From Capnocytophaga felis (lineage in GTDB: Bacteria; Bacteroidota; Bacteroidia; Flavobacteriales; Flavobacteriaceae), in assembly GCF_009684755.1 (NCBI RefSeq), contig NZ_BLBC01000008.1:1-64000 (forward strand): 64,000 bases of DNA, read 5' to 3'. Positions 11,408-57,230 of this stretch are shown one piece after another (the first letter of the stretch is position 1; each line of letters starts with the position of its first letter). Below the pieces are notes generated by a model. The model ran no database searches and was not told the DNA's origin. It saw only the letters and a program-made list of their open reading frames with translations. Position numbers and translations under genes: made by a program.

Positions 11408-11980
11408 TTACTCAATGTCAGTCTGAGCGTAGTCGAAGACTGAGCAAGTATAATTAGAATAAAAGGCTTCGACTTCGCTCAGCCTGACAAGTATTGCTAA
11501 AATAAAATGCTTCGACTTCGCTCAGCTTGACAAGTATTACGATGATAAAAGCTTCGACTTCGTTCAGTTTGACAAGTATCACTAAAATTATTTACAAGAA
11601 TGATTTATAAAATGCTTGTTATACTAGATTATCGTTTTTAGTAATCTGAATGGGGTTGAGGTGTTACTGAATGTCAGTCTGAGCGTAGTCGAAGACTGAG
11701 CAAGTATAATTAGAATAAAATGCTTCGACTTCGCTCAGCTTGACAAGTATCACTAAAATTATTTATAAAAATGATTTATAACGTGCTTGTTATGCTGGAT
11801 TATCGTTTTTAGTAATCTGAATGGGGTTGATGTGTTACTGAATGTCAGTCTGAGCGTAGTCGAAGACTCGGTAAGTATAATTAGAATAAAAACTTCGACT
11901 TCGCTCAGCTTGACAAGTATTACTAAAATTATGTACAAGAATAATTTATAAAGTGTTTGTTATGCCGGATTATTGTTTCA
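11408..11980. repeat. Nested tandem block of REP-like palindromes
   Basis: Three related units begin near 11408, 11664 and 11835. Units two and three have a 171-bp period. Each unit holds a left arm of type TGAGCGTAGTCGAAG and a right arm CTTCGACTTCGCTCAG that pair into a hairpin of about 22 bp. In unit one the right-arm segment is itself repeated three times (11467, 11510, 11552; about 42-bp steps), explaining its extra 85 bp. Units two and three also share ATCGTTTTTAGTAATCTGA downstream. No coding potential is seen. Palindromes with this TGAGCGAAGTCGAAG core are widespread intergenic repeats in Bacteroidetes. Confidence 0.85.
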
Positions 11981-30740: not shown

Positions 30741-32612
30741 ATGTTTCAAGAAAAATACGACGTTATCGTAGTTGGGGGCGGACACGCAGGAGCCGAAGCC
30801 GCCGCCGCCGCTGCCAATATGGGAGCAAAAACCTTGCTCATCACAATGCAATTACAAAATATCGCACAAATGTCGTGCAACCCAGCCATTGGTGGAATTG
30901 CCAAGGGGCAAATCGTTCGTGAGATTGACGCTTTGGGCGGATACACGGGCATCATTACTGACAAAACCGCCATTCAGTTTAAAATGCTCAATCAGTCCAA
31001 AGGACCGGCAATGTGGAGTCCGCGAGCTCAGTCCGACCGTATGCGATTTGCCGAAGAATGGCGTCTCCAACTCGAAAGATTGCCCAATCTCGACTTCTAT
31101 CAGGATATGGTTTCCGACCTCATTATCGAAAATCATCAGGTAAAAGGTGTGAAAACTTCGCTCGGGATTTCCATTTTTGCCAAAACGGTAATTCTCACTA
31201 ACGGAACTTTCCTAAATGGAGTTATTCACATCGGGATGAAGCAATTTGGAGGTGGAAGAGCAGGAGAAAAGGCTTCCAGAGGAATTACCGAATGCCTTGT
31301 TAATCACGGATTTGAATCAGGAAGAATGAAAACGGGAACGCCACCGCGTGTGGACAGTCGTTCGTTGGATTATTCCAAAATGATTCCGCAACCCGGTGAT
31401 GAAAATCCAGAGAAATTTTCCTTTTCGGAAGAAACGCAACCGCTTCAAATTCAGAAAGATTGTCATATGACCTACACCAGCGAGGAGGTACACGACTTGC
31501 TCCGAACGGGGTTTGACCGTTCTCCGATGTTCAATGGTAGAATTCAGGGTGTAGGACCGCGTTACTGCCCGTCCATCGAGGATAAAATCAATCGTTTTGC
31601 CGACAAAGACCGCCATCAGATTTTTGTAGAACCCGAAGGATGGCACACGGTAGAGGTTTATGTAAACGGATTTTCAACTTCGCTCCCAGAAGAAGTTCAG
31701 TTCCAGGCACTTCGTAAAGTAGAAGGTTTTGAGAATGTGAAGTTTTTCCGTCCGGGGTACGCCATCGAGTACGATTATTTTCCGCCAACACAGCTCAAAC
31801 ATACATTGGAAACAAAACTTGTTGAAAATCTGTATTTTGCAGGGCAAATCAACGGTACTACGGGCTATGAAGAAGCTGCCGCACAAGGGCTAATGGCAGG
31901 AATTAATGCGGTACGGAAAATCCGTGAGCAAGAGGAAGTTATCTTGAAAAGAAGCGAAGCCTACATTGGGGTTTTGATTGACGATTTAATTACCAAAGGC
32001 ACGGAAGAACCTTACCGAATGTTCACTTCACGAGCAGAATATCGCACCCTTTTGCGTCAAGACAATGCCGATGCAAGGCTTACGCCACTTGGTTTTTCAT
32101 TAGGATTGGCATCACAAAAACGAATGGACGTTTTGGAGCGAAAACAAACAAAAACAAATGCTTTTGTGGAGTTTTTTAAGGAAACGAGTATCAAACCTGA
32201 AGAGGCGAACCCGATTTTGGAGAAATACGATTCGTCCCCAATGAAACAAGGCGACAAGATGTTCAAAGTGCTTTCACGTCCGAACATTACCATTGCCGAT
32301 TTGCAACAATTGGAGAGCGTAAAATCATTCGTGGAAGCTAATGAAATTGACAGAGAAATCATCGAACAGACGGAAATTGAGGTGAAATACGCAGGATACA
32401 TCGAAAAAGAGAAAAACAATGCCGACAAACTCAATCGCTTGGAAGACATCCGCATACCTGAAAATTTCAATTACGACAAACTGACTTCTATTTCGTTTGA
32501 GTCTCGCGAAAAGTTGAAAAAAATCCGCCCAACAACACTCTCACAAGCCTCGCGTATCAGTGGTGTTTCCCCCGCGGATATTAGTATTTTATTGGTGTAT
32601 ATGGGGAGGTAG
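30741..32612 (+). CDS. mnmG: tRNA uridine-5-carboxymethylaminomethyl modification enzyme MnmG (GidA)
   Basis: A 623-residue full-length MnmG. With MnmE it makes the 5-carboxymethylaminomethyl group on wobble uridine of certain tRNAs, using FAD. Visible are the N-terminal FAD motif DVIVVGGGHAGAEAA, the CNPAIGGIAKGQIVREIDALGG signature, GRAGEKAS, RMKTGTPPRVD and LYFAGQINGTTGYEEAAAQG. The C-terminal helical MnmE-binding domain ends ISGVSPADISILLVYMGR. The 3'-terminal 50 bp are duplicated at 34144-34193, beyond an inserted Fic module; the copy kept in this gene differs in its last codons but encodes the same peptide. Confidence 0.95.
   Translation: MFQEKYDVIVVGGGHAGAEAAAAAANMGAKTLLITMQLQNIAQMSCNPAIGGIAKGQIVREIDALGGYTGIITDKTAIQFKMLNQSKGPAMWSPRAQSDRMRFAEEWRLQLERLPNLDFYQDMVSDLIIENHQVKGVKTSLGISIFAKTVILTNGTFLNGVIHIGMKQFGGGRAGEKASRGITECLVNHGFESGRMKTGTPPRVDSRSLDYSKMIPQPGDENPEKFSFSEETQPLQIQKDCHMTYTSEEVHDLLRTGFDRSPMFNGRIQGVGPRYCPSIEDKINRFADKDRHQIFVEPEGWHTVEVYVNGFSTSLPEEVQFQALRKVEGFENVKFFRPGYAIEYDYFPPTQLKHTLETKLVENLYFAGQINGTTGYEEAAAQGLMAGINAVRKIREQEEVILKRSEAYIGVLIDDLITKGTEEPYRMFTSRAEYRTLLRQDNADARLTPLGFSLGLASQKRMDVLERKQTKTNAFVEFFKETSIKPEEANPILEKYDSSPMKQGDKMFKVLSRPNITIADLQQLESVKSFVEANEIDREIIEQTEIEVKYAGYIEKEKNNADKLNRLEDIRIPENFNYDKLTSISFESREKLKKIRPTTLSQASRISGVSPADISILLVYMGR
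32556..32605 (+). repeat. Left copy of the 50-bp mnmG 3'-end direct repeat (attL-like)
   Basis: 49 of 50 bases are identical to 34144-34193. It is the 3' end of the mnmG coding sequence. Beyond it the two copies differ (GGGAGGTAG versus GGGACGATAG context) but both complete the frame to Met-Gly-Arg-stop. Confidence 0.9.
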
Positions 32613-32714
32613 GTTTTTATCAGAGATGTTACAGTTCTCCCTTTATTTCTGTAGTAACTATATGGAATAATTTCATTTTGATAATAATTTTTCATTACAA
32701 GATATAATGCTGTG

Positions 32715-33009
32715 TTTGTAATCAAAGTGGTTTGATGTGTATTTTTTGTAAACAAAGAAGTTTGATTACAAAATTTTCTTTATATTTGCAATCAAGAGGA
32801 TTTGATATATATTTTTTATAAACAAAATATTTTGATGACAAAATTAGATGCACACTTGTAATCAAAATGATTTGATATATATTTTTTATAAACAAACCAT
32901 CTTGATTACAAAATTTGATTAATTTTTGTAATTAAAATGGTTTGGTATATGTTTTTTATAAACAAAGTGATTTGATTTTAAAATTTACTTTATTATTGTA
33001 AACAAATTA
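32715..33009. repeat. Exact 70-bp-period array of eight 16-bp palindromes
   Basis: Sites of consensus AWCAAAnnnnTTTGAT occur at 32721, 32751, 32791, 32821, 32861, 32891, 32931 and 32961, with a partial ninth at 33001. Spacing alternates 30 and 40 bp without a single indel, i.e. four 70-bp units. Arms are kept while the central 4-5 bp vary. In unit one the outer arms TTTGTAATCAAA (32715) and TTTGATTACAAA (32761) also form a larger nested palindrome; this decays in later units. The array abuts the Fic start codon. It could be a multi-copy operator, an iteron-like array or a repeated RNA structure. Confidence 0.85.
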
Positions 33010-33014
33010 GATTT

Positions 33015-34130
33015 ATGGACTATAATTTAGATAATGCAGTAAAGTATCATTATGAATGCTTTCCACCAGAAAAAGTTAACTATGAAATATTCATAAATGA
33101 ATATTCAAAAGCAATAGAGGCATTGTCTCGCTTTGATCAAATGTTGAAAAACTTACATAATAATGAGATTCTATTGGCTCCTTTACGTAATCAAGAAGCC
33201 TTAATGTCTTCTCGAATAGAAGGAACTATAAGTACAATGGATGAGATATTGCAGTATGAAGCAGACAATGATAAAAAAGATAATTCGAATGCAAAAGCAG
33301 ATGTGATAGAAACTATATTGTATCAAAGGGCCCTAAAAAATTCTCAAAAAGCTCTGGAAGACGGATATGAGATATCTTTAAGTTTTTTGAAACAAATGCA
33401 CCAACAATTGCTTTATTTGGGGAGAGGTGCAAATAAGTCTCCCGGAGAGTTTAAGACTGAACAAAATTATTTGGCAGACAGAAGAAGAAAAGAGATACAA
33501 TTTATTCCTATTAGTCCTGAAAAATTAGTTGAAGGTCTCGAAAATTTATTTGATTTTATTAACAAAAGTAAATTTCCGCCCCTAATAAAGGTAGCTTTAA
33601 TGCATTTGGAGTTTGAAGCCTTACACCCGTTTAAAGATGGAAATGGAAGAATAGGTAGAATGTTGATTCCTATAACTTTATGGAAGGAAAAATTATTGTC
33701 TCAACCCCATTTTTATATCAGTGGTTTTTTTGAAGAAAATAAAGAGGAGTATATAGATACGATGAGAAATGTATCAATTACAAAAAAATGGGATGAATGG
33801 ATTAAGTTTTTTTTGATTGCTGTAGAGCATCAAGCAGTTGAAAACTTAAAAATAGCACAAAGTATAAAGGACTTATACGAAAAAACAAAAATTGAATTTT
33901 CAGAAATTCTATCCTCTAAATGGAATATGGAAATTTTGGATTTTATATTTACATACCCTATGTTCAGAAATAATAAGTTTGTAAGCACAACCAATATTCC
34001 AAATGCTACAGCTGTTTTGATAATAAAAAAGCTATTAGATAATAATTATTTGATTTTGAAAGAGGAAGCCTCTGGGAGAAGGGCAGCCTTGTACTCTTTT
34101 GAGCCTTTGATGGAATTAGTGAGGGTATAA
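33015..34130 (+). CDS. Fic family protein with N-terminal inhibitory helix and C-terminal winged-helix region
   Basis: A 371-residue Fic protein. The catalytic loop HPFKDGNGRIGR (His204 to Arg215) matches the HPFxxGNGR motif of enzymes that transfer AMP, or another nucleoside phosphate, to target proteins. An N-terminal inhibitory helix motif SSRIEGT (residues 65-71) fits the class that blocks its own ATP site with a Glu. The C-terminal 75 or so residues (NMEILDFIFTYPMFRN, then TTNIPNATAVLIIKKLLDNNYLI) look like a winged helix, which could bind the palindromes directly upstream. It is the only gene in the module between the mnmG-end repeats. Such proteins are often self-regulating toxins or signalling modifiers; the target is unknown. 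Confidence 0.9.
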   Translation: MDYNLDNAVKYHYECFPPEKVNYEIFINEYSKAIEALSRFDQMLKNLHNNEILLAPLRNQEALMSSRIEGTISTMDEILQYEADNDKKDNSNAKADVIETILYQRALKNSQKALEDGYEISLSFLKQMHQQLLYLGRGANKSPGEFKTEQNYLADRRRKEIQFIPISPEKLVEGLENLFDFINKSKFPPLIKVALMHLEFEALHPFKDGNGRIGRMLIPITLWKEKLLSQPHFYISGFFEENKEEYIDTMRNVSITKKWDEWIKFFLIAVEHQAVENLKIAQSIKDLYEKTKIEFSEILSSKWNMEILDFIFTYPMFRNNKFVSTTNIPNATAVLIIKKLLDNNYLILKEEASGRRAALYSFEPLMELVRV

Positions 34131-34143
34131 CAACACATTACAA

Positions 34144-34193
34144 ATCAGTGGTGTTTCCCCCGCGGATATCAGTATTTTATTGGTGTATATGGG
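34144..34193 (+). repeat. Right copy of the 50-bp mnmG 3'-end direct repeat (attR-like)
   Basis: Same 50 bp as 32556-32605 with one substitution. It is followed by a stop codon in the mnmG frame and, 22 bp on, by the TPR gene. This copy may be the original mnmG end, because it adjoins the gene that probably followed mnmG before insertion. Confidence 0.9.
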
Positions 34194-34221
34194 ACGATAG
34201 TAAATGTAAAACTTCAAAACT

Positions 34222-56893: not shown

Positions 56894-57230
56894 ATTTATT
56901 ATTTTTTTATAATTAATCATTTTATGCAATTTTCTTTCTTTTATTACAGAAAGAAAGTATTTTTCAAGCCAAGAATGTGAAAATTCAATTGTCTTTTATA
57001 GAATTTTATGCTTATTTGAGATGAAAATTATATTTTTAAGTATTTTTTTATTATATTATGTGCTATTTCTGTCAGATGGTGTGTGATTTCTGTCAGATGA
57101 TGTTTCATTTCCATTAGATGGTGTATGATTTCCATTGGATGACGTATGATTTCTATCAGATGGAGCATTATTTCTTATGGATTGTCTTTCATTTCTGATA
57201 GATGATGCAAAATTTTAAATGTTTTGAGCG
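56894..57230. other. Intergenic region with a 21-bp tandem repeat
   Basis: Mostly the heptameric repeat at 57065-57211. No promoter match is clear for the head-GIN genes. Confidence 0.6.
57065..57211. repeat. Seven exact-period 21-bp tandem repeats
   Basis: Units start at 57065, 57086, 57107, 57128, 57149, 57170 and 57191 with no indels; consensus ATTTCTGTCAGATGRTGTRTG. The minus-strand frame is open through all seven units (heptapeptide pattern like PSDRNHT) but has no start codon and is preceded by a stop, so it is either non-coding or a decayed coding repeat. It lies 19 bp after the DUF4097-like gene stop. Confidence 0.85.

What the first reader, a model, noticed from the sequence alone, without database searches (positions are those of the whole stretch)
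32715..33009. Eight palindromes on an exact 70-bp period before a Fic gene
Sites AWCAAAnnnnTTTGAT alternate at 30 and 40 bp with no indels over 280 bp, with conserved arms and a variable centre. Strict phasing with arm conservation suggests selection for protein binding on defined faces of the helix, or for repeated RNA hairpins. The array ends within 40 bp of the Fic start, and the Fic protein has a winged-helix-like C-terminus, so cooperative self-repression is the simplest model. An RNA antitoxin-like repeat upstream of a toxin gene (as in type III systems) is a second possibility, and a plasmid-type iteron origin a third.
Basis: partly seen in the sequence, partly recalled or inferred. Interest (0 to 1): 0.82.

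Follow-up and report, generated by a model that had tools for sequence, protein, structure and literature searches.

The report
Phased DNA sites before Fic gene
A toxin-like Fic enzyme gene carries in front of it a row of short mirror-image DNA sites set at rigid 30- and 40-base steps, a layout that related Fic genes in distant bacteria keep although the surrounding letters have changed, which is best explained as a landing strip for the enzyme's own DNA-binding end that keeps the gene silent.

Summary
Nine sites (eight clear, one degenerate over the start codon) lie at strict 30/40-bp steps; seven have the exact core CAAN6TTG. The layout follows the Fic gene: of 24 non-redundant loci of this Fic subfamily (45% identity or more; Bacteroidota, alphaproteobacterial plasmids and others), 22 have three or more such cores in the 300 bp upstream, and 115 of 125 core pairs fall on a 30/40/70/100/110/140-bp lattice. 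None of 78 more distant Fic loci and none of 84 other upstream regions has three. Fic is the only gene found in all 24 loci. Its predicted C-terminus is a winged helix.

Best reading: operators for Fic's own winged helix, giving tight autorepression. Precedent: CccR, a class II Fic that represses itself through one inverted pair. Binding was not tested. RNA hairpins are disfavoured: mates do not compensate for each other, though wobble pairs are somewhat in excess.

New: the subfamily-wide lattice, and arrays behind the gene in Myroides and, with other motifs, two distant loci, which suggest a role beyond promoter repression.

The parts
32715..33006 (+). Array: 4.2 tandem 70-bp units, each holding one 30-bp-spaced inverted pair of CAAN6TTG sites
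   Evidence: TRF and repeat finder; lattice fit
32721..32736 (.). Site 1 ATCAAAGTGGTTTGAT, centre -286 from the Fic ATG
32751..32766 (.). Site 2 AACAAAGAAGTTTGAT, centre -256
32791..32806 (.). Site 3 ATCAAGAGGATTTGAT, centre -216
32821..32836 (.). Site 4 AACAAAATATTTTGAT, centre -186
32861..32876 (.). Site 5 ATCAAAATGATTTGAT, centre -146
32891..32906 (.). Site 6 AACAAACCATCTTGAT, centre -116
32931..32946 (.). Site 7 ATTAAAATGGTTTGGT, one core mismatch, centre -76
32961..32976 (.). Site 8 AACAAAGTGATTTGAT, centre -46; its right TTG arm (32972-32974) is the candidate -33 promoter element
33001..33016 (.). Site 9, degenerate (AACAAATTAGATTTAT), one core mismatch, centre -6, overlaps the start codon
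32991..32998 (+). Candidate -7 promoter element TATTATTG, 16 bp after the TTG (Bacteroidota-type consensus TAnnTTTG is recalled, not from a call)
   Evidence: better matches near the same place in relatives (TATCTTTG L094, TATATTTG L086, TATTTTTG L042)
33015..34130 (+). Fic gene, 371 aa: Fic_N and Fic domains, FIC motif HPFKDGNGRIGR, inhibitory motif SSRIEGT, C-terminal winged helix
   Evidence: Pfam, PADLOC SoFic E 1.7e-106, AlphaFold2 mean pLDDT 91.3, Foldseek to 3eqx TM 0.84
33924..34100 (+). Part of the Fic gene that codes for the winged helix (residues 304-362; recognition helix 330-342)
   Evidence: secondary structure of the model
32556..32612 (+). 3' end of mnmG, left copy of a direct repeat that flanks array and Fic gene
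34144..34200 (+). Second copy of the mnmG 3' end, after the Fic gene; G003 of the same genus has the site without the insert

Best explanation
The array is the operator region of the Fic gene, read as double-stranded DNA by the Fic protein's own C-terminal winged helix. Each 70-bp unit holds one 30-bp-spaced inverted pair of sites, the likely footprint of one Fic dimer; units are stacked in fixed register so that several dimers sit side by side and repress cooperatively. The last clear site covers the candidate -33 promoter element and the next covers the start region, so bound protein excludes RNA polymerase. The purpose is to hold an AMP-transferring toxin, of the SoFic anti-phage kind, at a very low level until an unknown trigger. 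Shown: the lattice, its conservation with this Fic subfamily, its near-absence in the controls, the predicted winged helix. Inferred: that Fic binds, that binding represses, cooperativity, the dimer-per-pair stoichiometry, the anti-phage role.
For: 24 subfamily loci: 88 exact cores, 115 of 125 pairs on the lattice, 22 of 24 loci with three or more, against 0 of 78 distant Fic loci and 0 of 84 other upstream regions. Lattice kept between Bacteroidota and Pseudomonadota while the flanks differ. Fic is the only gene in all 24 loci; of the 14 most widely shared frame clusters listed, those outside Fic (judged by the coordinates of one example each) are in 3 and 2 loci. Predicted winged helix, residues 304-362, whole-chain match to SoFic 3eqx. 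A promoter-like box was found in 9 of 24 loci; in 7 of these 9 the nearest fitted upstream site lies at -46 to -48, over the -33 position (in L086 its arm reads TAG, not TTG). The extended core is almost confined to the Fic locus: 4 of 4 matches in the own genome, 9 of 10 and 7 of 8 in two Myroides genomes. Precedent: CccR represses its own gene through an inverted pair, as a dimer, through the HTH (passages of PMC9755527). Need for tight control: wild-type SoFic could not be cloned behind one lac operator but could behind three (PMC12249575 part 1 of 4).
Against: No binding or repression was tested. In Myroides the large array lies downstream of the gene, between convergent genes, with one exact core and half-sites upstream, which plain promoter repression does not explain. 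The operator geometry is not that of CccR (AGATAATCAT-N26-ATGATAATCT). Half-site flanks track the winged helix, but equally the FIC domain (partial Mantel 0.36 each), so co-evolution cannot be told from common descent. The core is not wholly private: in the 78 distant loci 20 exact cores occur, and the only 3 pairs among them are at lattice distances too. TRF finds a tandem array upstream in only 4 of 25 subfamily loci; in the rest the units have diverged and only cores and spacing remain. 15 of 24 loci gave no promoter-like box, and chance matches of that loose pattern in A+T-rich DNA were not controlled. At 10.5 bp per turn (recalled) neither 30 nor 40 bp is a whole number of turns.
Confidence: 0.78

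Rival explanations
1. The array is more than an operator: it is a DNA depot that holds many Fic dimers in a DNA-bound, non-toxic state, so that loss, replication or degradation of this DNA, for example by a phage, frees the toxin. Promoter repression is then one result of the array, not its whole purpose.
For: Myroides carries a 69-bp x 6.1 array with the same half-site directly after the Fic stop, in a convergent gap; two distant Fic genes, L147 and L141, have 40-bp palindromic arrays directly after the stop and no TRF array upstream. Nine sites seem more than repression needs (judgement). A Coxiella Fic with a C-terminal HTH is proposed to switch from AMPylating monomer to deAMPylating dimer on DNA binding (abstract and passages of PMC10628234).
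Against: Of 25 subfamily loci scanned, TRF finds a downstream array only in the two Myroides twins, and only these and L062 (two cores, off the lattice) have two or more exact cores in up to 700 bp downstream; some contigs end sooner. No data here on activity of bound protein. L147 and L141 belong to other Fic clades with other motifs, and their palindromes could be terminators or other elements.
Confidence: 0.18
2. The repeats act as RNA: hairpins in a transcript, as an antitoxin RNA of type III kind or a leader regulator.
For: The strand folds better than shuffles (z -2.96; 1 of 200 shuffles as good). As RNA the outer arms of one 58-base unit pair with each other (-12.7 kcal/mol). Wobble-type G-T pairs between own arms exceed arm-exchange shuffles (113 against 100.4, sd 5.3; 3 of 500 as high). 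Downstream arrays in Myroides and L147 could be transcribed with Fic. On review I raised this from 0.05 to 0.06 for the wobble excess.
Against: Arms of one site are less complementary to each other than to arms of other sites of the locus (358 Watson-Crick pairs against 390, sd 9.5; 500 of 500 shuffles as high or higher). Mates of one 30-bp pair match no better than exchanged mates: outer 343 against 345.3, inner 288 against 286.0. In the 9 loci with a promoter-like box it lies at -23 to -32 (L086 and L087 each have a second match), downstream of nearly all sites. No Rfam family reached its curated score there; two microRNA families matched the array far below it.
Confidence: 0.06
3. A host repressor or nucleoid protein, not Fic, binds the array.
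For: Binding by Fic is inferred, not shown; wHTH domains can lose DNA binding.
Against: The lattice follows the Fic gene across phyla and contexts and no other gene was found in all loci; extended cores are almost confined to the Fic locus in three genomes.
Confidence: 0.07
4. Iterons of a replication origin, or arm sites of a site-specific recombinase, left by a mobile element.
For: Fic and array sit between copies of the mnmG 3' end; the Myroides copy lies beside a tyrosine recombinase, with relaxase and primase genes further on; eight of the 20 plasmid records listed carry subfamily members at 45-70% identity.
Against: The five genes from the GDSL-lipase-like gene through the MutS-like gene, Fic among them, include no replication or recombinase gene. 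No recombinase or replication gene is shared by all loci while the lattice stays.
Confidence: 0.03

Closest known systems
CccR of Yersinia pseudotuberculosis (Nat Commun 2022, PMC9755527; passages seen)
   Same: Class II Fic with C-terminal HTH; negative autoregulation by binding inverted repeats in its own promoter; dimer needed
   Different: One pair of half-sites (AGATAATCAT-N26-ATGATAATCT, 46-nt footprint) instead of several pairs on a 30/40-bp lattice; its solved structure, which I take to be 7xux, aligns weakly to our model (TM 0.55-0.57)
SoFic / Sofic single-protein anti-phage system (PMC12249575, part 1 of 4 and passages read; PDB 3eqx, 3zcn)
   Same: Same fold along the whole chain including the C-terminal domain (TM 0.84); PADLOC SoFic model E 1.7e-106; FIC and inhibitory motifs
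   Different: NCBIfam SoFic equivalog cut-off not reached (160.6 against 550 bits); 24-26% identity; the 91-bp gap after the Fic stop cannot hold a 47-codon AS1-like gene without overlap, but ORFs below 60 aa were not searched in the window; no operator array of its own gene is mentioned in the parts of that paper that I saw
CbFic2 of Coxiella burnetii (PMC10628234; abstract and passages; PDB 8cil)
   Same: Class II Fic with C-terminal HTH whose activity is changed by DNA binding
   Different: Studied as a host-directed effector; bound the random DNA sequences used; no array reported in the passages seen
Type III toxin-antitoxin arrays (ToxIN kind; recalled)
   Same: Tandem repeat next to a toxin gene
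   Different: Toxin is Fic, not an endoRNase; mates do not compensate as RNA pairs

Membership tests
SoFic-type class II Fic | FIC motif HPFx[D/E]GNGRxxR (definition recalled; one search gives one example) | tested here: met
   HPFKDGNGRIGR; H204, P205, F206, D208, N210, G211, R212, G214, R215 invariant in 65 and in 58 aligned sequences
SoFic-type class II Fic | N-terminal inhibitory motif [S/T]xxxE[G/N] (definition recalled; one search gives one example) | tested here: met
   SSRIEGT at 65-71 in the window protein; E69 invariant
SoFic-type class II Fic | C-terminal winged helix and whole-chain SoFic fold | tested here: met
   predicted model only
SoFic-type class II Fic | NCBIfam equivalog cut-off for SoFic | tested here: not met
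   160.6 bits against 550; so it is SoFic-like, not the SoFic equivalog
SoFic-type class II Fic | AMP transfer and phage protection | not testable with these tools
   -
Self-repressing Fic with HTH (CccR kind) | Inverted repeats in own promoter region | tested here: met
Self-repressing Fic with HTH (CccR kind) | Single operator pair with N26 between half-sites | tested here: not met
   30/40-bp lattice; 2 to 9 fitted sites per locus, 9 in the window
Self-repressing Fic with HTH (CccR kind) | Protein binds and represses | not testable with these tools
   -
Type III toxin-antitoxin | Repeat RNA with paired structure kept by compensation | tested here: not met
   no compensation between mates and own arms less complementary than exchanged ones; wobble excess is a result in its favour
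Type III toxin-antitoxin | ToxN-like endoRNase | tested here: not met
   Pfam finds Fic_N and Fic only
Iteron origin | Replication initiator gene beside the repeats | tested here: not met
   genes tested beside it: GDSL-lipase-like, mnmG, Fic, TPR protein, MutS-like

The most novel reading that the evidence does not exclude
The array is a DNA-borne antitoxin: a lattice on which Fic dimers are parked in an inactive or reverse-acting state, so that the array both silences the gene and stores the enzyme, and loss or damage of this DNA is the trigger of the toxin. This would explain why the array may sit before or behind the gene, why it has many more sites than repression needs, and how SoFic-like single-gene defence systems could manage without a protein antitoxin.
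Probability: 0.17. Interest if true: 0.88.

Novelty: new variant of a known kind. Interest (0 to 1): 0.64.

Why it matters
What activates SoFic, a single-protein anti-phage system, on infection is called elusive in PMC12249575 (passage), and its auto-inhibition incomplete. A rigid multi-site operator that follows one Fic subfamily across phyla gives a concrete, cheap test of what the C-terminal winged helix does. It also offers a sequence signature to find members, and the downstream arrays raise the testable idea that DNA itself serves as the antitoxin.

Tried and rejected
Rejected: RNA hairpin or type III reading (points in its favour are told above); iteron reading; a second array in the own genome (none found). 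Co-evolution of half-site and recognition helix is inconclusive: Mantel r 0.74 with the helix and 0.74 with the FIC domain, partial 0.36 each. A general word-repeat test found four or more copies in 48 of 71 Fic upstreams against 79 of 1025 control windows, but base composition confounds it and for many loci own shuffles reach the same count. A sigma-70-type scan was uninformative (15 sites, shuffles 10.8). Phage records: 5 with a match at E 1e-10, all under 30% identity. Viral contigs: none with the single sequence, 71 loci with alignment A3. Minus-strand loci were printed in the wrong orientation (L014-L016); corrected, the faulty prints not used.

Rows dropped before the main count: of 158 loci with a tblastn hit, 47 for short coverage or a start too near an end, 8 as near-identical upstreams (7 of them subfamily); 103 kept, 25 of them at 44% identity or more; L043 left out as twin of L042, giving 24 and 78. 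One of the 24, L102, is an N-terminally truncated Fic (from about residue 78 on). Subtracting its row leaves 23 loci, 85 cores, 112 of 122 pairs on the lattice, 21 with three or more. L062 has two exact cores and L042 one; L097 has three but no lattice pair among them. L014 has an internal stop and was counted by its upstream DNA only. Searches used sites chosen by the lattice fit (at least 4 of 6 core letters), L102 included; one search was also run without it, with the same outcome.

Full report
What is there. The region 32715-33006 is a tandem array of 70 bp x 4.2 copies without indels. Its sites lie at 30/40-bp steps, with centres -286, -256, -216, -186, -146, -116, -76, -46 and -6 from the ATG of the Fic gene at 33015; seven of these nine have the exact core CAAN6TTG.

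The gene. It encodes 371 aa with Fic_N and Fic domains, a FIC motif, an N-terminal inhibitory motif and, in an AlphaFold2 model with mean pLDDT 91.3, a C-terminal winged helix: helices 304-313, 319-326 and 330-342, strands 346-350 and 359-362. The best structural match is SoFic of Shewanella, TM 0.84. PADLOC calls it SoFic (E 1.7e-106), but the NCBIfam SoFic equivalog cut-off is not reached.

Relatives. Homologues came from genome searches, plasmids and viral contigs. Among loci that pass the coverage rule, identity to the window protein falls into a subfamily at 45-77% and the rest below 40%. The window's own organism was not told; I take it for a flavobacterium from these matches.

The lattice follows the subfamily. 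In the first 13 loci there were 45 exact cores against 2.5 expected from shuffles, with 53 of 57 pairs on lattice distances. In the enlarged set of 24 there were 88 cores and 115 of 125 pairs on 30/40/70/100/110/140 bp (each +-1), 28 of them at exactly 30 and 20 at exactly 40; 22 of 24 loci had three or more cores. The lattice distances make up 14% of the distances considered. The 78 more distant Fic loci had 20 cores, none of them three in one locus; their only 3 pairs were at lattice distances. Of 84 other ORF upstreams in the same loci none had three cores and none a lattice pair; 300 shuffles gave at most one lattice pair. In an earlier control with 592 windows, the only one with three or more cores was the Myroides downstream array. 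In nine loci at 45-47% identity (three named alphaproteobacterial plasmids, six viral-collection contigs) the fitted positions are -26, -56, -96, -126, two of them with one more at -166.

Only Fic is shared. An all-against-all comparison of reading frames around the 24 genes shows Fic in all 24. Of the 14 most widely shared clusters listed, most are shadow frames inside the Fic gene by the coordinates of their example; outside it one is in 3 loci, and the recombinase of Myroides recurs in L086. Flanks held were 1.5-6 kb upstream and 0.2-6 kb downstream. So the binding protein is most likely Fic itself.

Fine structure. Outer arms of the 30-bp pair fit the locus consensus better than inner arms in 18 of 23 loci (Wilcoxon p 0.007), and the two classes often differ in sequence, for example CTGTTATCAA and tTGgCatCAA in L098. 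The elementary unit therefore looks like an inverted pair with its axis in the 30-bp gap, repeated every 70 bp. I read this as one Fic dimer per pair; that is inference. Half-site flanks differ by clade (TGTAATCAA for window and kin, TGAAnACAA for L086 and L094, GATaaTCAA, TGtCatCAA) and track relatedness; the helix cannot be singled out.

DNA or RNA. Own arms of a site form fewer Watson-Crick pairs than exchanged arms of the locus (358 against 390; 500 of 500 shuffles as high or higher), though more wobble pairs (113 against 100.4; 3 of 500 as high). Mates of one 30-bp pair match no better than exchanged mates (outer 343 against 345.3, inner 288 against 286.0), so the arms behave as independent copies of one half-site. 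In 9 of 24 loci, all Bacteroidota by kinship or name, a loose promoter-like box of the TAnnTTTG kind (consensus recalled) lies at -23 to -32, and in 7 of the 9 the nearest fitted upstream site is at -46 to -48, over the -33 position. Most of the array would thus lie upstream of the start point.

Arrays behind the gene. Myroides has one exact core and half-sites upstream, but a 69-bp x 6.1 array with the same half-site TGTAATCAA directly after the Fic stop, in a convergent gap before a radC-like gene. Around it lie tyrosine recombinase, relaxase, NikA-like, primase and VapE-like genes. Two distant Fic genes, L147 and L141, have 40-bp palindromic arrays directly after the stop. Other SoFic-like genes have arrays of 40-44 bp upstream (L015, L068, L021, L084, L092, L093), and L113 has 70 bp x 3; in all, TRF finds an upstream array in 11 of 78 distant loci and a downstream one in 2, against 11 of 554 other windows. 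In the subfamily it finds 4 of 25 upstream and 2 of 25 downstream, against 8 of 330 other windows. Simple promoter repression does not explain the downstream ones; a depot, DNA looping or an unrelated role of these palindromes are open.

Literature. CccR is a class II Fic with HTH that represses its own gene by binding one inverted pair, as a dimer (PMC9755527, passages; also told in a review, PMC12894286, passages). CbFic2 is proposed to change from AMPylation to deAMPylation on DNA binding (PMC10628234, abstract and passages). For Sofic the activation mechanism is called elusive and leaky expression is toxic (PMC12249575, part 1 of 4 and passages). Searches for such arrays with Fic found no paper that describes one: searches returned none, only the CccR and CbFic2 papers; searches showed nothing further to the point by title and start of abstract, the lists of 25, 29 and 65 being capped. 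The library lacks most subscription papers.

Mobility. Array and Fic gene (32613-34143) lie between two copies of the last 57 bp of mnmG. A genome of the same genus (G003, L048) has mnmG followed directly by the TPR gene; in G009 further partial mnmG ends follow mnmG. The cassette thus looks like an insertion at the mnmG 3' end; the only gene recognised in it is Fic.

Verdict. Self-repression by Fic is the best reading (0.78), unproven. New variant of a known kind: known are Fic self-repressors with one operator; new, as far as these searches reach, are the conserved 30/40-bp lattice and the arrays behind the gene.

Noticed in passing
window 32556-32612 and 34144-34200: The last 57 bp of mnmG are present twice, flanking array and Fic gene; L048 (G003) shows the site without the insert, and G009 has further partial mnmG ends after its mnmG (L045, L060, L061). 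The mnmG 3' end looks like an insertion hot spot in this genus.
   Followed up: partly
L043 7117-7515 and the same place in L042: 69-bp x 6.1 array with the Fic half-site directly behind the Myroides Fic gene, near recombinase, relaxase and primase genes.
   Followed up: partly
L147 and L141, first 200 bp after the Fic stop: 40-bp palindromic arrays directly behind Fic genes of other clades (viral-collection contigs), no TRF array upstream; L147 has a terminator-like stem-loop after the array by eye.
   Followed up: partly
L021 (same genus), upstream of its Fic gene, -254 to -18: A second, distant SoFic-like gene in the same genus has a 41-bp x 5.8 tandem array directly upstream.
   Followed up: partly
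L102, around the Fic start: A 77%-identical Fic that lacks about the first 77 residues, inhibitory motif included, with array sites directly before the remaining frame.
   Followed up: no
L013, L015, L068, upstream of Fic: By eye, frames before these Fic genes resemble the C-terminal end of type I restriction HsdS subunits (recalled, not tested).
   Followed up: no
window 11445-11978 and 57065-57195: Other tandem repeats: 43/171-bp periods and a 21-bp x 5.3 array.
   Followed up: no
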